Assembly (NCBI GenBank): GCA_002682825.1
Contig: NOKP01000003.1
Location: forward strand, 1,550,001-1,614,000
Direction: 5' to 3'
From: Neonectria sp. B-13
Lineage: Eukaryota > Ascomycota > Sordariomycetes > Hypocreales > Nectriaceae
Length of the DNA stretch: 64,000 nucleotides
Shown here: in pieces, positions 4,844-54,803 of the stretch
Numbering within the stretch: the first letter of the stretch is position 1
Layout of the letters: every line of letters starts with the position of its first letter
Program-made: the position numbers and the translations under genes
Notes under the pieces: model-generated
What the model was told of the DNA's origin: nothing
What the model saw: only the letters and a program-made list of their open reading frames with translations
The model's database searches: none

Positions 4844-6327
4844 CTACAGAATCGAACCTGAAAGAATGAAGCTCAGACCATGAACTTCGACCAATGCTCG
4901 CTCGCCGTGTTCCTGCATCTTCATCCTCACAAACGGCTCCATGGTCTCCGCCTCCGCCTTGGTGAGCATGCCGAGCCTCGCGTGATGATCGCCGTTCTCG
5001 TTGTCCCCAAAAAACTTTCTGTCCAAGAATTTCCAGTAAACGTAGTCGAACGCCCAGCTGTTCCTGGCCGCGTAATTGATCATCCATGCTCTGCTCTCCC
5101 AGCGTTTGCGCATCTGCTGCGAGAGACGCACTCCTCCTTGGTCACCGCCGGCGGTTCCAGAGCCAGCCTGCAAGTTTTCTTCTTCTTCCTCTAGGAGATG
5201 CAAGATCGTTTTCAAGCGAGGCTCGTATGTCTCCATCCAAGACACATACCCCCCCTCGGACCAATCATCCGGTGCCTTCAGGAGGAGCCACCAATCAATA
5301 ACGCCGACCACGCGGAGGTCCTTGTCGATCAATACGTTGGAGGGACGCAGGTCTTCCGAGAACAGTCGAAATACTGCCTCTTTGCTGCTCTGATGATCCT
5401 CGTCCGTGTCAAATCTAGACACGAATCGCTCTTCTGCGGCTAGCCGCCGGAAAAGCTGGCGAGCGACGTATTTATCTCTCGCGTCGTCTTCATCCTCGAC
5501 AGCGTCATTGTGCTGAAATGCCAACTGCGTCAGGTGCATGTCAGCTAGTGCAGAGTACCACTCCGTAGCGGTCGAATACTGCCGGTTTGGCAATAGAGAC
5601 GGAGGCGCCTCTGTGAACTCGAGAATTGAGTTCATGTTCATAGTTAGGGGCCGCCCGGACACATAGAAGCCCCCGTCTTCATCTTGAACCAGTGATCCAA
5701 TGCGGTCGAATGTCAGCGTAGACAGCTGCAAAATGATGTTGGCCATCTGTCTGTAGAGAACTTCGAGCTTCTCTGTGCTGACGTTAGGATCCAGGACATG
5801 AGACTCGCTAGAGTTGATAACGGGGTCATTAAGAGCCTCCGACATTGTTTTCTCGTGCTCAGTATAGTCCATGATGATGAATGGTCCCAGGCCAGTAGGA
5901 TTTTCCGCTACGGTACCATAATGGTAGACCTCAGCAACTGGAATCGTGGTTTTCTCCGCAATATACCGCATCATTGCGACCTCATAGCGGACTTTCTCGT
6001 CGGGGCACTTAACGATTGCTATCATCGACGGTTAAGCAATCGCCAAATTGATAAGGACACTACATTCTCAAATACCTTTGCAGGGGATCCTCAGAGCAAC
6101 TGAGGAGCCATCCTGATAATCCAGGCGGTAGAATACGTTATACCCGCCTCTGATCGGACTGTGAAGCTCCACGGCTCCCCGGGTCGGTATTTGTTGATAA
6201 AACTGCCAATATCGCGGTATACCTGCGCCTTGAATAACGACCTCTCCCACGTCTCGGCCTCTTCGTCGCCTTTCTCCCAGGCAAGGTCATCCTGCCTCAT
6301 CCGCATATATCTCGGTTTGAGAGGCAT
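4844..6327 (-). CDS. APH-fold phosphotransferase family protein, frameshifted near 5' end
   Basis: The likely gene starts at ATG 6327 (MPLKPRYMRMRQDD), has a 57-bp intron at 6019-6075 (GT-AG, branch CTTAAC) and ends at 4844. Exon 2 (4844-6018) carries the family core: KVRYEVAMMRYIAEKT, a catalytic-loop equivalent FSEDLRPSNVLID and the following metal-binding segment VVGVIDWW. These match the aminoglycoside-phosphotransferase-like kinases that are numerous in filamentous fungi; the substrate cannot be predicted. Within exon 1 the frame that starts at 6327 reads to about WSFTVRSEA, while the family-typical continuation GGYNVFYRLDYQDGSSVALR lies in another frame, so a one-base shift is needed near 6147-6156. 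No intron fits there. It is either a sequencing/assembly error or a real inactivating lesion; the long intact remainder favours a recent event. Confidence 0.7.
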
Positions 6328-36271: not shown

Positions 36272-37103
36272 TCACGCAGACCGAGGAGCCAGGGCGATGC
36301 AAGAAAAGCGCAGGTCGCCACCTTCAGCCGAATCGGCTCGCTGAAGATCCATCAATCGCTTGATTCCCAGCTGTAGAGCCTTCTCACTCAACGCATCTTC
36401 ATCCTCGGCCAACAGCCCCCTGTGTATCGGTCCCTTTCTCGCACCCTCCAGCTCCCACAAGTTTCCGTCCCCGGCCCTGACGAAGGCTACAAAATGGTTA
36501 CCCATCCGCTCCATCTCGTCAATGCTCGGTGGAGCCGTGTCCCCGATGAGAGACGATGCCTGACTGGCTTGGAATATGACCTCGGACCTGGACAAAAGAC
36601 TTGCACGGTCCTCTCTATGGAGGGGAATAGCTTCGTCGCGAAACTTGGCAAGATCACTTCCGGGGACGACCATCTCCGTAGGCGCGCCGTTGTAGATACA
36701 GTGAAGAAATCCAATCAGGCCACAGCCGTGTATGATGGTTTGATGAAACCACACCGCGGGTTCATCTGGGCCGGCACCGTCGTACCACTCTGTCTGCTCA
36801 TCTTCGGCTTCACGTTCGCGTTGCCAGGCTTTTGTCAGGGGAATGATGGCCAACAAGGCGTAAACGGGACGCGGGACGGTAGCCAAGAGTTCCGGGTCAT
36901 CTAGGGAATAGACGTCATGGAACGAGAGGTCCGGGGAGAGTCCCAGCCGCTGAGCAAGATCATTCATCACCTCGGGGTTGTTCTCTAATGTGCATCGTCA
37001 GCTGACTAAGGTAGGAAAGGGTGCACCGTCCACGGCAAAGCCTACCAAGCATGGTGAATATCCTCGGCGAAGAGCCAGAGGCCGGGTGAGTTTCCTGCGC
37101 CAT
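36272..37103 (-). CDS. Ubiquitin C-terminal hydrolase, UCH (L1/L3, Yuh1) family
   Basis: Exons 37046-37103 and 36272-36984 (61-bp intron, branch CTGAC) give 256 residues. The start LENNPEVMNDLAQRLGLSP and FHDVYSLDDPELLATVPRPV are typical UCH N-terminal elements. The active-site segment is QTIIHGCGLIGFLH, giving oxyanion Gln101 and nucleophile Cys107; the general base is His183 in NHFVAFV. UCH enzymes remove small adducts from ubiquitin or related modifiers. Unusually, the segment that should provide the catalytic Asp (ELDG in relatives) reads ELEG, so Glu199 stands at that position. Everything else looks intact and in frame. Confidence 0.88.
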
Positions 37104-44795: not shown

Positions 44796-45962
44796 CTAAG
44801 CTCCCTTGTTCTCTAACCCAGTTAAGGCCTCACGCTCCTTCTTCTGCTTGAGCAGCGTCTCCAATGGCTTGTGGGTAGAGATCAAAGTCATGTTACCAGT
44901 TCCAGAAAGATACGGCGTATCTGTAGGGTTATCCGAAGTGCGGATAACGTAGTTCTTGGGTTGGTCATCAACCACGAGACGCAATAGATCGGGACGAGAG
45001 TAGTGGCCGACGCAGTCGGTGAGGGTCTTTGCGTAGTCGATCGCATCCAGGTCAATATCGCAGTAGATCAGGCCGTCAAAATTGGGATCAGTGGGCTCAG
45101 TGAGCTGCTTGCCATCAGGAGCAAACACGGCGGCACGGCCACCGCCTCCGCTAAGCATGAAGCTCTCCTTGCTGGCGCCGGCTTGACCCTGACTATTCAA
45201 TCTGCTGCCCTCGGCAGACAGCGGCTGGTTGGTGCAGAGAACGTAAACGCCTCCCTCCAGAGCATACATTCGGCTAGCAGTAAGTTCGTTGGCCTCAGAG
45301 AACAGCGACCAAGGTTGATTGCCCCCGTTGTACTGGCCGTTGAACGGCCATGCAGCGATGTGAACCTGCTCGCCTTGCGAGTAGGTGTGGTACTTGAGCA
45401 GAGGTTGATAGTGCTCTGTAACTCACAGTTAGTATGAAACTTCGATGCACCCAGAGAGTTATTGCTTACCCCAGCAGTTCAGCATGCCAATCTTGCCGAG
45501 AGGAGTTTCAACGACAGTGGTGAGGGAGTCTCCAGTCGAATCCCCGAACAAGGTTCTCTCCACGTGCGTCGGCTTGGTCTTGCGTCGATGGAGAAGGATG
45601 TTGCCATCAGGGCCGATGAGGACTTGGGCAAGATACAGGCTCGCACCAACGCGCTCACTGAAGCCAAATCCGACATGCATCTTATTCTCGGCCGCGCACT
45701 GGCGGATCTGAAGCATCTCGTCGCCATAGGCGGACATGCTGTTCTGCATGTACTTCTGAACCAAGGGGATGTTCTCTTGGTAGTTGCCCGACCACAAGAA
45801 GTTTGGGTAGCCAGGGATCCAGACCTCCGAGAAGGCAATGAGTGCAGCTCCATTATGTTTGGCTTCCTGGATGAGTTGGACAGACTTCTTGATGCCGGCG
45901 ACCTTGTCAAACCAGCAGGGCTCGGCCTGACTAATGGCAGCTTTCCACTGACGGATAGACAT
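44796..45962 (-). CDS. Nitrilase (nitrilase / cyanide hydratase branch)
   Basis: Exons 45470-45962 and 44796-45415 (54-bp intron, branch CTAAC) give 370 residues. The Glu-Lys-Cys catalytic set of branch-1 nitrilases is present: Glu46 in AFSEVWIPGYP, Lys128 in RRKTKPTHVER and Cys163 in LNCWEHYQPLLKYHTYSQ. The CWEH context and HIAAWP downstream are those of fungal nitrilases and cyanide hydratases; the exact substrate (aliphatic or arylacetonitrile, or HCN) cannot be called from sequence. The reaction is nitrile plus water to acid and ammonia, or to amide. The gene is divergent from the sugar-porter gene and shares a 718-bp promoter with repeated dyads. An ATG at 45962 (MSIRQWKAAISQ) is chosen; the longer upstream frame starts only at TTG. 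Confidence 0.92.
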
Positions 45963-46200
45963 GGTGAGTTGACGGTCAAGGGATCGATGATATGGAGCTA
46001 GAGGCTTAAAGTGATCACGATGAGGAGGGATAATGAATCGCAACAATGATGAAGTCGTTAAGCCTGTAAGACCGACTGCTCGGTCGACTTATTATATACC
46101 GTACTCGACATTCGCCATGTTATCGTATCCCCAGAGCTCTACCAGACGCAAATCATATGCAAAGTCAGCTTTCGCCTCTAGTTCGAACCCCATGGTACCT

Positions 46201-46217
46201 TGGATAAGCATTATCCA
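46201..46217. promoter_or_regulatory. Dyad 1: TGGATAAGCATTATCCA
   Basis: Perfect 7-bp inverted arms (TGGATAA / TTATCCA) around a 3-bp centre; equivalently YGGATA-N5-TATCCR. It lies 239 bp upstream of the nitrilase ATG. Confidence 0.6.
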
Positions 46218-46250
46218 TCACCTTATCTACTATTGGCAACACGGGCGTCT

Positions 46251-46267
46251 TGGATAGGCATTGTCCG
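46251..46267. promoter_or_regulatory. Dyad 2: TGGATA-N5-TGTCCG
   Basis: Sequence TGGATAGGCATTGTCCG, same spacing as dyad 1 with one change in the right arm; an extra half-site CGGATA follows directly (46266-46271). Confidence 0.5.
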
Positions 46268-46333
46268 GATAACACCCCGCAGTAGTAGTGGAGCAGGATC
46301 AAGCCATGGCGTCCGACTAGTAGGTTCATAGGC

Positions 46334-46344
46334 TGGATAATGCT
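46334..46344. promoter_or_regulatory. Half-site TGGATAATGCT
   Basis: A left arm TGGATA followed by the same ATGC spacer start as in the dyads; the right arm is missing. Confidence 0.35.
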
Positions 46345-46472
46345 TTTAGTGTTGGCGTCAATTTGCGCTATCTGTGACCGTCCAGTGCAAGGTAGACTAT
46401 ATCGGCTATGACCTGGTTCAAGATGCTTGAATCGCTTTGCGCAGAGCATTTCCCATACCTAGGCTGGTCAGC

Positions 46473-46489
46473 CGGGTAATGCCTGTCCA
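46473..46489. promoter_or_regulatory. Dyad 3: CGGGTA-N5-TGTCCA
   Basis: Sequence CGGGTAATGCCTGTCCA, same spacing and the same ATGCC spacer as the copy near 51821. A TATCCA half-site follows at about 46493-46498. It lies about 190 bp upstream of the MFS ATG. Confidence 0.5.
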
Positions 46490-46680
46490 CCTTATCCATT
46501 CTACTACTAGCTTGAAGCTTCTCGGGGCCGCGGCGCTCAGAATGTTCTCGACCCTAAGACATCTCTGCCGAACTTCTATTAAAGACGATCGTGATTCCCC
46601 ACGGTAAACGAGATGCCGTTGTTAACCCATACGACGCCAACCAATCAATTCCACAAAGTCATACTCAACCATCTTCCACA

Positions 46681-48645
46681 ATGTTGTCCGGGAAAAGACT
46701 GAACACGTTTGTACGCATGATATGACATCTCATTCGGCTTGCCTTTCGAACCGGCTAACACTGTTTCCCCCTAGGTTATTCTCTTCTCCACCTTGGGAAG
46801 TCTCACATATGGGTATTGCGCCTGTATTATCGCTACTACATTGGGGCAGCCCAGCTTCATCAAGTATATGGGATTGGATACAGCATCCAACAGGACTCAG
46901 TTGGAGGGTGCCATCAATGGCTTGTTCCAGGCGGGCGGTCTGATCGGAACTCTTGCCTGTAGCGAGGCCGCTGATCGCCTGGGCCGGAAGAAGGCCATCC
47001 TTATCGCCGCCTGTCTTTGCGTCATAGGCGGTGCACTGCAAGCCGGCTCAGTACATGTTGGCATGTTCGTCGCGGCGAGATTCATCACTGGCTGTAGTGT
47101 CGGTACGTAGTCTCGAGAGAGCTGATAGTCAGACAATCACGCGTTACTAACATACATCTCTTCCAGGTGCACTTGTTACACTTGTACCTCTCTTCCAGAG
47201 TGAGATGGCGCCACCGCAAACTCGAGGTTGGTTGGTAGGCCTCCATGGTATGTGTGTCCCCCAGATATTGCTCGAGTCGGCTCTCTGATGGCATGTTCCA
47301 GGTGTCTTTATTCTTCTCGGCTACTCGATTGCGAGTTGGGTCGGCGTAGGCTTCTTCTTCGTCGACGTTGGCGGTGCTCAGTGGCGACCACCCCTAGCCT
47401 TCCAGTGTATCTTCCCATTGTTGCTTGCTGCTGGGGTGTCGCGTCTCCCTGAATCCCCCCGATGGTGTAAGTACTCTCGTTTCTGCCCACTCAGCGCCAC
47501 GATCTAGATGGGGTCGTTGAAGCTGTGCTGACTCGCCCATAAGTGATCGAACGGGGACGAACGGACGAAGCAAAAGAGATCCTATTCAGCTTGCACGAGT
47601 CCGAAGACGATCACTCGCATGTGTTCGCGGAGACCGAGCTTTCGCAGATCAAAACGCAGCTGGATTACGAGCGGACGCTCCCTTCGTCGTGGGCGTCGCT
47701 CTTCACAGTCCCATCCTACCGAAAGCGCGCCATTATAGGATTTCTGACCATGTTCTGTGCCCAAGGCTCTGGAACTCAGGTCATCAACAGTAGGTCCAGA
47801 GAGATCACTTGTATACAACGTGATCATGCGGCTGATAGATGACTAGATTTCGGGCCTTTGCTGTACTCTGGTCTTGGTTATAGTAGCCGTAATCAGCTCC
47901 TGCTCCAGGCAGGCTGGATTACCTACGGTCCAATCGGCAACTTCATCAACGCGATTCTCCTGGACAAGCTGGGTCGCAAGCCAATCATGGGTAAGGGGCA
48001 TTGAAATCTCACCTTGGCGATTTCGAACTGACCGTGGTAGTGTTTGGGCTTGCTGGAACCGCCATGGCCCTGCTCGGCGAGTTGATCATGCTTGCACTCT
48101 TCACCGGCTCCGATAACCGTGCCGCACTCAGCGCTGCCGTTTTCTTCTTGTTCTTGCACATCGGATTGTAGGTCAACCTTGTCCGCTCGTTGCCGATCGC
48201 AGCTAATTGTACCTTCGCTAGCTATGCGTCGTGCTTGGACGCTTCAACCTACGTTTATGCTTCTGAAATCTGGCCAACCCATCTGCGGGCCAAAGGCTGC
48301 TCGTTGTCGACAAGTGGGCTGTTTGTATGCTCGCTCATCTTGCTCATGGCTGCCCCTACTGCCTTTGCTGCCATCTCGTGGCGATATTATCTCGTCTTCT
48401 TCTCTCTCACATTCACTTCCATTTGGATCTTCGCATTCTACTTCCCAGAGGTAAGGCTATCACAGCAAGGTACCGCGATTGAGGCTAATCATTTGTTACA
48501 GACAAAGGGATTGCCACTAGAAGAAGTTGCCCAACTATTTGGAGACCATGTCGAGTTACACATCGTAGAGGGTACAATCCTGGAGGACACTGCTAGCAAG
48601 CTCAACAGCACTACTGAGCGCGAAGTTAAAAAGGAGTCGGCTTGA
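46681..48645 (+). CDS. MFS transporter, sugar-porter family
   Basis: Nine exons (46681-46710, 46775-47102, 47167-47247, 47302-47466, 47544-47789, 47847-47990, 48041-48167, 48222-48450, 48502-48645) give 497 residues; introns are 50-77 bp with good branch points. Sugar-porter marks are present: DRLGRKKAILIAACLC in loop 2-3, RLPESPRW ending the sixth helix region, DKLGRKPIM in loop 8-9 and PETKGLPLEEVAQLFGD after the last helix. Twelve membrane segments are expected. Members carry hexoses, polyols, quinate and other acids as proton symporters. The divergent position next to the nitrilase suggests uptake of a nitrile or of a related plant compound. The first exon is only 30 bp. Confidence 0.88.
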
Positions 48646-48907: not shown

Positions 48908-51386
48908 TCAGTTGCTGTTTAATCCAGCCCACGGTTGGCAGTCCAGTTCTTGCCAAAGGCCGAGCGAAAGTGCATCGTCAACGCCATCCAAGTCTTCAAA
49001 GAGCCAGGGAGGCATGCCGGAGTCTAATATAGGTGGCATCTGTAAGCCTTCGGATGTTGAATCATCATCTTGCAGCTTGCTGTCCGGACTCGGTATTCCG
49101 ACACTCAGCGCACCTTGAATATCCTCGCACACAGACCACTCTTCAGCCAGCTGGCGAATCGCGAGTAATGCACGCCGGCTCCATGCCCATGCAGTACTCA
49201 TTTCATCCAGCGCTGTGACTAAAGTCTCCAAAGAGCTCACACTTCGACGCCGTGCGCTAAATTCCGCCGCTGTTGCCTCTACAAGGACAATAATGGCGGC
49301 TGTAAAGGCGCAATGGACGGCGGAAATAGGGATGCGCCGCTGGATAACCGTAAGAAGACGAAACTCATAGTCGACATTATCTGCGAGACTTACCAGGGTG
49401 TAGTGGTTGCGGTAGAGTTTAAAGATGTTGGCTATAGAGTGAGCTGACTGGCTGCATTCTTTCAAGTGGATAGGAGCTGCATCAGGCTTCACAGTCTTTG
49501 AGCCTCCTGTAGTCTTTTGGACTCTAATGAATGGTCGATGAAGAAGTATCACAGCAACGTGATATTGAAGACTTGAAAGGAATCAGTCATAACCCATCAT
49601 TACAACATAGGGAACACGACAAGGATAAAGAGATAATAAGGAAACCGGTGACCTACTGAAGATGGTAGACATGGGGGAGGGCAGGCTGGGAGGAGGTAAT
49701 TGGAAGCCGAAGACAGCTCGGTAGATGAGTGTAAAATTCCATGAGTTTGACGTGTGTTTTGGCAACCAGATCGGCCATGTGCGGCGCGGTGGCGCGGCCT
49801 CGAGGGCGATACCTGTAGTTAAGTGTTAGCTAGTGGCAAGTCACGGCACGAGACAGCCATACACCTCGTCGAGCGCAGATGCTGAGAATTTGAATAATCG
49901 ACAGACGTCCGAGCAGTTGGAGATGATGTGGTTTCTCGGGAGGACTATTCTCGGCCCTGTGTCTGGGGCTCCTGACCACTCTCCATACTCAGGCTCGTGC
50001 TGGGCGGTCGGCAGGGGCGCTGTGACTTCGTGCTCCTGGATCGTTGATGGCCGTCCTAAGCCAATATTGAAGAGTCTGTGATACATATCAATCAACATCT
50101 CAAGTATGCAGGAGGAAAGGAGAGTATGTCATACTTGTCAATAACATAGCAACCCCACCAGACAACATTTCTATACTCCGCCTCCTGCTTGGTGATGTAA
50201 CCTGCTTTGCACCCAGGGTCACAGTCGAGATGCAATCCCAGATTGAAGGCCATTCTTGTCGCCATCCCTAGACGCATTCCAATCAGCAAAGAAAGTGAGC
50301 AATGGTTCCATGAAGAGAGAAACCTACCGCAGTATACCCAGCCAAGTGCCTCTTTGTCCGTCGCTGTTTCTCGCAGAGAAAGCAGAGCTGCCGCCTGTAC
50401 TGTTGCAACGCTAGGTGCTTGGCTCTCATAGAACAAAAGTATCTTTGCTTGCTCCGCAAGTGCGTTGCCCGCGGTGTTCGGATCATCAGGATCGGTGCGC
50501 AACTCCGGTCGATCTGAGTACCGAGCTGCCAAAGCCAAGACTGCCGATAGGACGAGTAAAGAGGCGTACTGACCCGAATGGTCAACGTACAGGTCTTGTA
50601 TGAACAGGTCCTTGACAATGATGTACTGCCAATTGTTCTGCCAGCTCCAAAATATGTCTAGCAGGTGGTCCTGGAGCTCTGCGGAAACTTCTGCGCGCAA
50701 GTTTAGTCGTTGCAAGGTGTCCATGGCTCGATTTTGCAGTTCCAATGTCGATATTGATGATTTCTCGGCCAATTTGCTTCGCAGGAGCGAGAAGTTGCTC
50801 CGAGACCCGAAATATCGCACCTGTCCATCTTCCCCAACGTTCAAGCGTCCAAGGCGGTCGGAGAGCTCTCGCATGGGCGATCGTCGACCCAAGGAGACAC
50901 CGTCGGAGGTTAAGTCGGACTCGAGCTCAGACTCAAGCTCGGACTCGAGCTCATCGTGAAGTTCCGAGTCGCCCGTATCCTTTGTGGCCAGGTCCGGACG
51001 AGAGTGCTGGAGTTGTGACTCGAGGTTCCTGATGCGCTCCTGAAGCGCCTCGACGTATCGTTTGCTCGGAGGTCTAGGCCCCTTTGTTAGATGTGCCCTC
51101 GATATACCGTCAATCGACCAAGGGAGCAGCAGCAAGCTCTTACTTTCGATTACTTTCTTTGGACGTGTATTCGCATAGCCCCTTAGCTTCATAGCAGGGA
51201 GTACATGATGGTCTATTACCGTCACACTGAAGATTCGCGAGGCGTAGTCAGGCGCTTTTGTGTTCTCGAGCATGTGAGTGGGACTCTGGATCGGGGGCTC
51301 ACTTTGATTCTCTTGGCTCGACACGGGTTACAGGCGACAGTCGAGCGCTGTCTTGGCTTCCCAGAAGCCGTGGTTTGTATATTCAT
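48908..51386 (-). CDS. Zn2Cys6 transcription factor 1
   Basis: Eight exons (51303-51386, 51144-51226, 50328-51073, 50135-50267, 49863-50075, 49657-49812, 49394-49571, 48908-49339) give 674 residues. The binuclear cluster is Cys19, 22, 29, 36, 39, 46 (CNPCRAKRIKC...CTPC...C), followed by a linker and coiled coil (RYVEALQERIRNLESQL) and an acidic repeat ELESELESELESD (about 85-100). The fungal-specific middle homology region is evident: YASLLVLSAVLALAARYSD, GWVYCGMATRMAFNLGLHLD, VVWWGCYVIDK and IGLGRPSTI. The first intron falls inside the zinc cluster. Intron 7 (49340-49393, 54 bp) is open in frame, so retention would add 18 residues. Its upstream region has the same dyad as the nitrilase/MFS promoter; it is the best candidate regulator of that pair and of itself. 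Confidence 0.88.
50917..50952. repeat. 12-bp coding repeat, three copies
   Basis: Three copies of GGACTCGAGCTC (the middle one with two changes) encode the Glu-Leu-Glu-Ser repeats of the transcription factor on the minus strand. Confidence 0.85.
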
Positions 51387-51820: not shown

Positions 51821-51837
51821 CGGATAATGCCTATCCA
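51821..51837. promoter_or_regulatory. Dyad 4: CGGATA-N5-TATCCA
   Basis: Sequence CGGATAATGCCTATCCA, with the same arms, spacing and ATGCC spacer as the copies in the nitrilase/MFS promoter, 435 bp upstream of the factor's ATG. Confidence 0.6.
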
Positions 51838-52390: not shown

Positions 52391-54803
52391 TCATACAGGC
52401 ATATTCAAGTTGAATTGCTCGTCGGGAATGTCCCAGTTGCTCGGTGAGGGCAGGTTAGATAAGAACGACGGTGGCTCAGCCGAGCGCTCAATCAGGACTT
52501 TCGCCAGGCTTCCGTGATCGACCAGTGACCAAAGGAACTGCTCTGATGCGGAATCAAGATCGGCTGCCAGGCATTTGACGTCGAATAGATAACCGTAGCT
52601 ATCGGCACGCGCCTCAAGTTCTTCAAGTTTGGTTTTCTGCCATTAAACCATGGTCAGCTTCCACAGTATTTATATTCGAGACATTGGGGGAGAAAGGAAC
52701 AAACCATATTTGCAGCCATTGGCCACAGCTTTGCCAGTCTTTCCAATACGTCCATGGTCCTCTTGAAATAGCTTTGGGCGTCATAGTTGTCCACATCAAC
52801 GTCCTGGTGCTGCGCATCAGATACCAAGCAATGGATTCCGGCAGCGATAGCAGCGCAATATGTGTAAAACGACGAGTCGAGAGAGATTAAACTGTCAGAA
52901 GCCACTCTAAGCAAGTCTGAGAGTTTTCGTGCGTGGTCTTGAGACAAGCGAAAAGCATGTGAGGCGAAGCTGCTGGGGGCCCTCGATGCTATGGGTCCGA
53001 GCCGGACACGCAGCAGGAATGGATGATTGAGCAGACAATGACAGAGATGAAACAAAGCGTGCGAAAAGATGAGGTAACCAATCTGACACATGTCGACGTC
53101 ATCTTCTGCCAAGGGCCCATAACGGATGATGTCGAGTATGGGCGTTGCACGGCTGTTTAGTTGTGATTCGAGCAACAACAGAGAAGCATTAGTCGCTGTG
53201 AAGTCTGATTTGGGATCCCATGGGGACAGATTTTCAGATCCCGTCCGACCATGCATATATCTCGTGCAATTACCAAAGATGGATGTGGTCACAATAGTCA
53301 AGCCGAAAAGACTTTGAGAAGGGGCCTGGGGGGTATGCCAACTCAGCATCTGCTGCAGGGTGGGCGTTTGAACCCATTCTCCGTTTTGGAATTTTTCATC
53401 ATCGCAGGGAAGTTGAAGGGTGCAGTCGTGATCTAAAATAGTTGCTGGTCGCGAGCGCGCGCATGAGATCAACTTGTCCATGATATACGTGGACCAAAAC
53501 GTCCTCCGGCGCTCTTCGCGTTCCGTCTCTAGGAGGAAGGATGGGGGTTCCGACATGAGGTCGATCTCTTGAGAGAGGCGAATGGCGAGGCCGAGGCGTA
53601 ACCAACCCGAGCTAACCTTTCCCGCTATTGATTCATAGCTGTTAGCGTCTGTTCGAGCAAAAGGCTTGGCATATAGGAACGTAGGACTATGGAAATAAAT
53701 GCAATTGGTACCGCAAGGGAATCGGAGATATGATGCAATATATGATGTCGGTCAGCAGTCCTCCTTACCAGTATAATCAACAATGGCCAGCAGAGTGGCG
53801 GTTTGAATCACGGATAAATCAAGATTGTCGTCGACGCTCAGATTATTCTCGATGACACAGAGCCATGACTGTCGCGAGAATGCGTTTGAGGCCGCATGAA
53901 CTTTTCCAAGGAAGTAGGGATTCTCGGAGAAGCGGACGGCTAATGCGAGCACTGCGAAGAGCAAGCACTTTGGCACCTGGTCATTTTCTAGGCGCTGCAA
54001 AAATGAGGCACGATGGAAAAAGGAATAGGGCTGGTTCTGGACGCGGGCGAAATATGTGTCGACGAGAGATCGCAAAATGTCAGGCGGTGGGATCCGATCG
54101 AGAGAACTATCCGAAGGGCAAGGGACCATTAGTGATAGTGTTCCAAGGATGAGGTTGGACAGACTTGATCTTACACATCCTCGGCCGCGGTTGCATATGC
54201 TAACGAGTCACTTGCGTCACCGAAAGCGGACTGATTCAGGGGGGCTGATTCGGCATGCTTTGACGGCGATGGGAGTGCGGGGGTCATATAGTCGTATAGA
54301 GATGGGGCGAGTGCCTGACTGCGGCAATGCCAGGCTGTATTAGATATCAGAGGGAGTAGCAAAGTAGACGTAGGACCTACATTGAAGGCCCTAGCTCGCC
54401 CTGATTGAGTCTGCTTAGGATCATCTCGATCGAGGAGATGCGCTGCAGAAGCTCGGTCTAGTGTCGGAGTCAGCCACCTAGAAGATCTTTACGACTTGTC
54501 TGACAGTATTATTTACACTTGTTGAGGCATTGGGCGGTGGATGAGGGTTCGATCCATCTCTGGATATCGAAGAAGAGAAGGCTTCGTACACACAGCTGCG
54601 TCGATTCCGTTGACAGAGAGTACATACAGGACGCTCCCCAGAGCATCTAGTCTTTCGTCGCCTGTCGAAACAAGAAGGGAGGAGGGCCGTGGTCAGCTCA
54701 ACTCGGTGCCTCGGGTTCTGAAGCGTGCTCACCTGCAATTGGCGCAAGCTTGGCGGATTCGCTTGATGACTCCCGCATGTGACGATGGACGACGCGTTTC
54801 CAT
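52391..54803 (-). CDS. Zn2Cys6 transcription factor 2
   Basis: Seven exons (54733-54803, 54505-54661, 54381-54457, 54175-54318, 53769-54106, 52705-53624, 52391-52636) give 650 residues. The cluster is Cys20, 23, 30, 37, 40, 47 (ACANCRRRKTRCSGERP...CTLC), interrupted by the first intron within NCR|RRK. A short coiled coil (ELLQRISSIEMILSRL) follows, then the fungal transcription-factor domain: LRSLVDTYFARVQNQPYSFF, LLFAVLALAVRFSENPY, GWLRLGLAIRLSQEIDLMS, EREERRRTFWSTYIMDKLIS and SRPATILDHDCTLQLP. The donor of intron 2 (54504) is uncertain among three nearby choices. It lies 476 bp downstream of the ligase gene in the same orientation. Confidence 0.82.

What the first reader, a model, noticed from the sequence alone, without database searches (positions are those of the whole stretch)
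45963..46680. Repeated YGGRYA-N5-TRTCCR dyads in a divergent nitrilase/transporter promoter
Three dyads with identical 5-bp spacing (46201 TGGATAAGCATTATCCA, 46251 TGGATAGGCATTGTCCG, 46473 CGGGTAATGCCTGTCCA) plus several half-sites lie between two divergent genes. The spacer is also similar (AGCAT, GGCAT, ATGCC), and ATGCC recurs in the copy at 51821. This is seen directly. Inference: a pathway-specific Zn2Cys6 dimer controls both genes. The GATA cores allow an alternative, AreA-type nitrogen control, which would also make sense for a nitrilase.
Basis: partly seen in the sequence, partly recalled or inferred. Interest (0 to 1): 0.78.

Follow-up and report, generated by a model that had tools for sequence, protein, structure and literature searches.

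The report
Shared operator of fungal nitrile-gene clusters
A 15-letter near-palindrome repeated in front of a fungal nitrile-degrading enzyme, its partner transporter and their presumed control gene recurs in front of aldoxime- and nitroalkane-degrading genes that sit beside related control genes in the same genome, so it is very probably the docking site of a family of dedicated gene switches.

Summary
Three dyads lie in the 718-bp divergent nitrilase/MFS promoter and one is centred 443 bp upstream of the cluster's Zn2Cys6 gene: 7 strand-hits in 64 kb against 0.22 expected. Read in one direction all four are GGRYAATGCYTRTCCA, which occurs nowhere else in the 61-Mb genome except mirror copies of the same sites.

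New: two paralogous clusters share the site class GGRTAAT-N3-TAYCC (GG-N11-CC): aldoxime dehydratase–regulator–nitrilase, with dyads before both enzymes, and nitroalkane oxidase/MFS–regulator, with a dyad in the divergent promoter. In seven cluster promoters, eight dyads have spacer 5 and none another spacer from 0 to 12. A matrix from the window sites alone puts the three enzyme promoters level with or above all but 0–1 of 191 control tiles.

Best explanation: the cluster's own Gal4-type regulator binds as a dimer and switches nitrilase, transporter and itself. AreA is a poor fit for the dyads (GGATA, not HGATA), though HGATAR is above chance upstream of the regulator (7 against 3.0). The half-site resembles QA-1F's, but the dyad is one base shorter. 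Binding is untested, and promoters of other species could not be read.

The parts
46201..46217 (.). dyad 1, TGGATAAGCATTATCCA (oriented on the minus strand: GGATAATGCTTATCC)
46251..46267 (.). dyad 2, TGGATAGGCATTGTCCG (oriented on the minus strand: GGACAATGCCTATCC)
46473..46489 (.). dyad 3, CGGGTAATGCCTGTCCA
51821..51837 (.). dyad 4, CGGATAATGCCTATCCA, centred 443 bp upstream of the regulator's ATG (possible autoregulation)
46335..46345 (+). extended half-site GGATAATGCTT without a second arm
46028..46033 (+). isolated GGATAR half-site
46267..46272 (+). GGATAR half-site directly beside dyad 2
46492..46497 (-). GGATAR half-site directly beside dyad 3
44796..45962 (-). nitrilase gene, 370 aa, one intron (45416-45469), PF00795; nearest solved structure a cyanide hydratase
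   Evidence: gene model
46681..48645 (+). MFS transporter gene of the sugar-porter family, 497 aa, eight introns, PF00083
   Evidence: gene model
48908..51386 (-). Zn2Cys6 regulator gene, 692 aa, six introns, Zn_clus and Fungal_trans; proposed binder of the dyads
   Evidence: gene model

Best explanation
The dyads are operators for a dimer of the cluster's own Gal4-type (Zn2Cys6) regulator, encoded at 48908-51386. Each zinc cluster reads one GGRYA half-site; the two half-sites are inverted, with GG and CC exactly 11 bp apart. The three dyads in the divergent promoter switch nitrilase and transporter together, and the one upstream of the regulator gives autoregulation. The inducer is presumably a nitrile, or a compound brought in by the transporter. 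The regulator belongs to a paralogous family in this genome whose members also control aldoxime dehydratase/nitrilase and nitroalkane oxidase/MFS genes through the same class of operator, GGRTAAT-N3-TAYCC. Shown: the sites, their statistics, gene models, gene linkage in other fungi, and paralogous clusters with the same dyad. Inferred: which protein binds, dimer binding, activation rather than repression, inducer, autoregulation.
For: Dyads far above chance in the window and, in oriented form, unique to this cluster in the genome. A complete zinc cluster whose DNA-binding region aligns with Gal4 and Put3. Same dyad class upstream of enzyme genes in the two loci that hold the regulator's two best-scoring paralogues, and none in the other eight fetched loci. 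Spacer 5 only: 4 window and 4 paralogue dyads, none at spacers 0-4 or 6-12 in seven promoters, 1 at spacer 5 in 136.3 kb of control. Matrix from the window sites alone: nitroalkane oxidase/MFS 15.1 bits (0 of 191 tiles as good), aldoxime dehydratase 13.7 (1 of 191), nitrilase-2 12.0 (1 of 191). Linkage of regulator, nitrilase and MFS in other fungi.
Against: No binding or expression data. No dyad in the promoters of the two paralogous regulators, so autoregulation is not shared. The fourth paralogue dyad (L053:5113) does not reach the 9.5-bit listing limit of the window matrix, while a place in L054 does at 15.0. The loose 17-letter motif is not enriched genome-wide. 10 of the 16 distinct genome sites of GGRTAATNNNTAYCC lie outside the three clusters and were not examined. 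The second aldoxime dehydratase and the second nitroalkane oxidase gene have no such site on their contigs. L053 was not chosen blind: one of its dyads had been listed.
Confidence: 0.77

Rival explanations
1. The dyads bind a different zinc-cluster regulator, such as the second Fungal_trans gene around 52654-53751 or an unlinked factor.
For: A second Fungal_trans gene lies next door, and dyad 4 lies between the two regulator genes.
Against: Dyad 4 is on the start side of the 48908-51386 gene and on the stop side of the second gene. The paralogous clusters that share the dyad contain paralogues of the 48908-51386 regulator, and that regulator's homologues are the ones linked to nitrilases and MFS elsewhere. 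I did not search for homologues of the second gene.
Confidence: 0.13
2. AreA/GATA nitrogen control through the GATA cores of the dyads.
For: Three of four window dyads contain GATA; a nitrilase releases ammonia; HGATAR upstream of the regulator is 7 against 3.0 expected, and 4-5 against 2.8-3.9 in the three paralogue enzyme promoters.
Against: AreA/NIT2 prefers HGATAR (PMC4246892, passage), but the GATAs in the dyads are preceded by G; dyad 3 has no GATA; GG/CC and the fixed spacing are not part of a GATA site; HGATAR in the 718 bp is 3 against 3.0. Separate GATA sites may still add nitrogen control.
Confidence: 0.06
3. The dyads are chance or duplicated sequence without function.
For: The oriented consensus was derived from the sites themselves, and the loose motif is not enriched genome-wide. 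Dyads 1 and 2 form an 18-nt direct repeat.
Against: Shuffle statistics; that direct repeat hardly extends beyond the dyad; a matrix from the window sites alone picks out the paralogue enzyme promoters.
Confidence: 0.04

Closest known systems
QA-1F/QF operator (QUAS) of Neurospora crassa, GGRTAARYRYTTATCC
   Same: Inverted GGRTAA-type half-sites serving a cluster-specific regulator; present in divergent promoters, with a common element reported between qa-1F and qa-1S (PMC12941744 and PMC6859608, passages).
   Different: QA-1F's dyad is GGRTA-N6-TATCC (16 bp), here GGRTA-N5-TAYCC (15 bp); the 16-mer is absent from the window even with one mismatch. I compared no QA-1F protein sequence.
Gal4 / RhaR sites, CGG-N11-CCG
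   Same: GG and CC 11 bp apart (RhaR: PMC12941744 table passage; Gal4 site recalled); the regulator's DNA-binding region aligns with Gal4.
   Different: The outer C/G is not kept (T or C in the window; any base in the paralogues), while inner letters GGRYAAT are.
AraR/XlnR sites CGGDTAAW / CGGNTAAW
   Same: Dyads 3 and 4 contain CGGDTAAW (site from PMC6486530, passage).
   Different: Dyads 1 and 2 do not; here the element is a fixed-spacing inverted pair.
NirA/NIT4, site CTCCGHGG
   Same: Many homologues of the regulator are named nit-4-like or NirA by the sources.
   Different: CTCCGHGG is absent from the cluster; the one outgroup-like row named NirA (P0098) lies outside the 100-row clade. 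Authentic NirA/NIT4 sequences were not compared.
Fungal aldoxime dehydratase-nitrilase gene pairs (Fusarium graminearum, Ochroconis mirabilis)
   Same: Paralogue cluster L053 holds an aldoxime dehydratase and a nitrilase gene; adjacent pairs are reported (PMC4738786, passage).
   Different: The passages I saw mention no regulator or operator; here a paralogous regulator gene lies between the two and dyads precede both enzyme genes.

Membership tests
Zn2Cys6 (Gal4-type) pathway-specific regulator | C-X2-C-X6-C-X6-C-X2-C-X6-C zinc cluster | tested here: met
   also in both paralogues; Zn_clus 28.9 bits against cut-off 21
Zn2Cys6 (Gal4-type) pathway-specific regulator | Fungal_trans regulatory domain | tested here: met
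   PF04082 E 2.3e-33
Zn2Cys6 (Gal4-type) pathway-specific regulator | linkage to the genes it controls | tested here: met
   window cluster; linkage to nitrilase, MFS or aldoxime dehydratase in 24 of 104 homologues, lower bound
Zn2Cys6 (Gal4-type) pathway-specific regulator | binds the dyads as a dimer and controls the genes | not testable with these tools
   needs gel shift or DAP-seq and a deletion strain
QA-1F operator | GGRTAA-N4-TTATCC, 16 bp | tested here: not met
   0 matches in the window with up to 1 mismatch; no spacer-6 dyad in seven promoters
Gal4/RhaR operator CGG-N11-CCG | GG and CC separated by 11 bp | tested here: met
   all eight dyads
Gal4/RhaR operator CGG-N11-CCG | outer C and G | tested here: not met
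   T or C outside in the window, any base in the paralogues
AreA/GATA site | HGATAR | tested here: not met
   dyad GATAs are GGATA; HGATAR in the 718 bp 3 against 3.0 expected, but 7 against 3.0 upstream of the regulator
NirA/NIT4 | CTCCGHGG sites in target promoters | tested here: not met
   6 in the window, none from 29267 on
AraR/XlnR site | CGGDTAAW | tested here: inconclusive
   in dyads 3 and 4, not in 1 and 2; window total 5 against 7.6 expected

The most novel reading that the evidence does not exclude
Fungi carry a dedicated family of paralogous Zn2Cys6 regulators, each linked to a different enzyme for C-N compounds (nitrilase; aldoxime dehydratase plus nitrilase; nitroalkane oxidase). 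All read one operator code, GGRTAAT-N3-TAYCC, with cluster-specific core letters, so the clusters form a partly cross-talking regulon for nitrile, oxime and nitro compounds, hidden so far under the label 'nit-4-like'.
Probability: 0.45. Interest if true: 0.68.

Novelty: new member of a known kind. Interest (0 to 1): 0.52.

Why it matters
None of the papers listed by my searches (listings of at most 20, of which I opened passages of few) is about how fungi switch on nitrile, aldoxime or nitroalkane genes. If right, this gives a testable operator and regulator for nitrilase, aldoxime dehydratase and nitroalkane oxidase genes, relevant to chemistry with plant defence compounds and to inducible expression of industrial nitrilases. 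It also offers a natural series of paralogous regulators and operators in one genome in which zinc-cluster specificity can be compared, and it suggests that many proteins labelled 'nit-4-like' belong to a separate regulator family.

Tried and rejected
NirA/NIT4 site: absent from the cluster. QA-1F 16-mer: absent. Duplicated promoter segments as the source of the dyads: the direct repeat of dyads 1 and 2 is 18 nt, hardly longer than the dyad. RNA element: no tRNA (ARAGORN, bacterial settings) and no Rfam family at gathering score in the window. Spacer-5 dyads at the other eight fetched loci (L054-L059, L062, L063): none. Autoregulation in the paralogous clusters: no dyad in the two regulator promoters. 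Sites at the second aldoxime dehydratase or second nitroalkane oxidase gene: none of the sites is on their contigs. Literature: searches (no paper) listed no paper on a fungal nitrilase regulator; most subscription journals are not held. The regulator tree is a FastTree with local support only; the two paralogue rows fill 42-49% of the columns and several rows have long branches.

Data handling: mirror copies of contigs and a site read on both strands were collapsed before counting distinct sites (20 strand-hits became 16). Linkage counts were made by eye from the longest-contig column and locus tags; the nitrilase and MFS lists show the best 120 of 2498 and of 1104, so misses are expected, and one of the MFS matches (P0075 with P0227) rests on contig length alone under different species names. 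Two further fusions (P0009, P0094) with unrelated domains were not counted. Locus L053 was not chosen blind: one of its dyads (C39:5666112) was already visible.

Full report
What is there. Intron-rich genes and best-scoring protein hits from Pleurostoma, Fusarium and Cylindrodendrum point to a filamentous ascomycete. Around the finding are three genes. A 370-aa nitrilase runs leftward from 45962 (one intron, PF00795). A 497-aa sugar-porter-family MFS runs rightward from 46681 (eight introns, PF00083). A 692-aa Zn2Cys6 regulator runs leftward from 51386 (six introns, Zn_clus and Fungal_trans). Gene models are mine, from open frames and splice signals. The nitrilase's nearest solved structure is a cyanide hydratase (E 4.7e-81); its substrate is not known.

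The dyads. YGGRYA-N5-TRTCCR gives 7 strand-hits at four places against 0.22 expected, and no shuffle of 100 reaches 7. Three are in the 718-bp divergent promoter and one is centred 443 bp upstream of the regulator's ATG. Read in one direction all four obey GGRYAATGCYTRTCCA. In the whole genome that string occurs at 8 places, which are these four sites and their copies in a mirrored part of the same contig (the mirror copy is identical over 8500 of 8500 bases). The loose motif itself is not enriched over the genome (86+82 strand-hits, backward control 79+82). GGATAR half-sites are dense in the promoter, 7 against 0.97 expected, 3 of them within dyads, and an 11-bp extended half-site lies at 46335.

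Support from paralogues. Protein searches of the own genome turned up other nitrilase, regulator and MFS loci. I fetched ten of them and scanned them. Two hold spacer-5 dyads, and these are the loci of the regulator's two best-scoring paralogues. In L053 (C39:5661001-5671000) the order is aldoxime dehydratase (PF13816, E 8.5e-88; nearest solved structure phenylacetaldoxime dehydratase), a paralogous regulator, and a second nitrilase, all leftward. Dyads GGATAATTGGTATCC and GGATAATAAGTACCC lie 191 and 317 bp upstream of the nitrilase ATG, and GGGTAATTATTATCC lies 466 bp upstream of the dehydratase ATG. In L064/L060 (C39:5976001-5989000) a nitroalkane oxidase gene (nearest solved structure nitroalkane oxidase, E 6e-49) is divergent from the MFS paralogue with the highest identity by segment (64% over residues 12-121), and another paralogous regulator is convergent to that MFS. 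The dyad GGGTAAGTATTATCC and three one-mismatch dyads sit in the shared promoter of about 695 bp (the MFS start codon there is putative). All three regulators have the complete zinc cluster, and the two introns beside it fall at the same places.

Statistics. The genome rate of GGRYA-N5-TRYCC is 609 places in 60.9 Mb (backward control 566), so 20 kb should hold 0.2; L053 and L060 hold 4. L053 was not blind, since one of its dyads had shown up. Over seven cluster promoters, spacer 5 gives 4 (window) and 4 (paralogues), while spacers 0-4 and 6-12 give none; 136.3 kb of control gives 1 at spacer 5 and 0-2 at the others. A matrix built from the four window sites alone scores the nitroalkane-oxidase/MFS, aldoxime-dehydratase and nitrilase-2 promoters at 15.1, 13.7 and 12.0 bits, with 0, 1 and 1 of 191 control tiles reaching them. 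The two paralogous regulator promoters score nothing special. Over 169.6 kb the four best places outside the window are three of these dyads and one place in L054; the remaining paralogue dyad (L053:5113) is below the 9.5-bit listing limit. The common site is GGRTAAT-N3-TAYCC. It has 20 strand-hits genome-wide against 10 for the backward control; collapsed, 16 distinct sites, 6 of them in the three clusters. Since the pattern was fitted to these sites, that last count is a description, not a test.

Gene linkage elsewhere. Among 104 regulator homologues, 8 share a contig or neighbouring locus tag with a listed nitrilase and 14 with a listed MFS. Two share both, and 4 more are annotated as fusions with a nitrilase (one), an MFS (two) or an aldoxime dehydratase domain (one), which makes 24 of 104. 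The shared contig is inferred from equal contig length, and some of these contigs are megabases long. Consecutive tags occur in Penicillium sp. CMV-2018d (N7465_002517 regulator, 002518 MFS, 002519 nitrilase). In the tree of 107 rows the window regulator falls in a 26-row group (support 100) with Fusarium and Pleurostoma proteins. The dehydratase-cluster regulator falls in a 7-row group (support 93) with the Fusarium protein fused to an aldoxime dehydratase. The nitroalkane-cluster regulator falls in a 6-row group (support 99) with the two MFS fusions. A protein named NirA (P0098) lies outside the 100-row clade that holds all three. Adjacent aldoxime dehydratase and nitrilase genes in fungi are already reported (PMC4738786, passage).

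How it works. Most likely the cluster's own zinc-cluster protein binds each dyad as a dimer and switches the nitrilase, the transporter and itself when a nitrile or a related compound is present. The DNA-binding region aligns with Gal4 and Put3. GG and CC are 11 bp apart, the register of Gal4 (recalled) and RhaR (PMC12941744 table passage). The half-site GGRTAA is that of QA-1F, but QA-1F's dyad is one base longer. Which protein binds, its sense (activator or repressor) and the inducer are inference. The divergent promoter with shared sites recalls the bidirectional QUAS element between qa-1F and qa-1S (PMC6859608, passage).

AreA. AreA/NIT2 prefers HGATAR (PMC4246892, passage). The dyads carry GGATA, one window dyad has no GATA, and HGATAR in the 718 bp is at the chance level (3 against 3.0). 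Upstream of the regulator HGATAR is 7 against 3.0, so nitrogen control through separate sites there is possible.

Limits. No expression or binding data. No promoter of another species could be read. 

Noticed in passing
   Followed up: no
G000 contigs, e.g. C50:1-1824023 (L061): Several contigs of the assembly are mirrored: hits recur at coordinates with a constant sum on C20, C27, C34, C36, C38, C41, C47, C50, C54, C59, C72, C105 and C114; the copy of the cluster is identical over 8500 of 8500 bases. Probably a fold-back assembly artefact; it doubles naive counts.
   Followed up: partly
L054 (C67), L055 (C59), L056 (C83): Three further nitrilase genes lie within 10 kb of more distant Zn2Cys6 regulator paralogues (23-27% identity) but without the spacer-5 dyad: possibly the same arrangement with other operators.
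   Followed up: partly
window 46226-46237 and 46500-46511: A 12-nt repeat TCTACTAYTRGC follows dyads 1 and 3 at a similar distance, and CACCTTATC follows both dyads directly; a second, unexplained element.
   Followed up: no
window 4844-6031 and 36272-36997: An APH-type phosphotransferase-family frame and a ubiquitin C-terminal hydrolase frame, ordinary neighbours.
   Followed up: no
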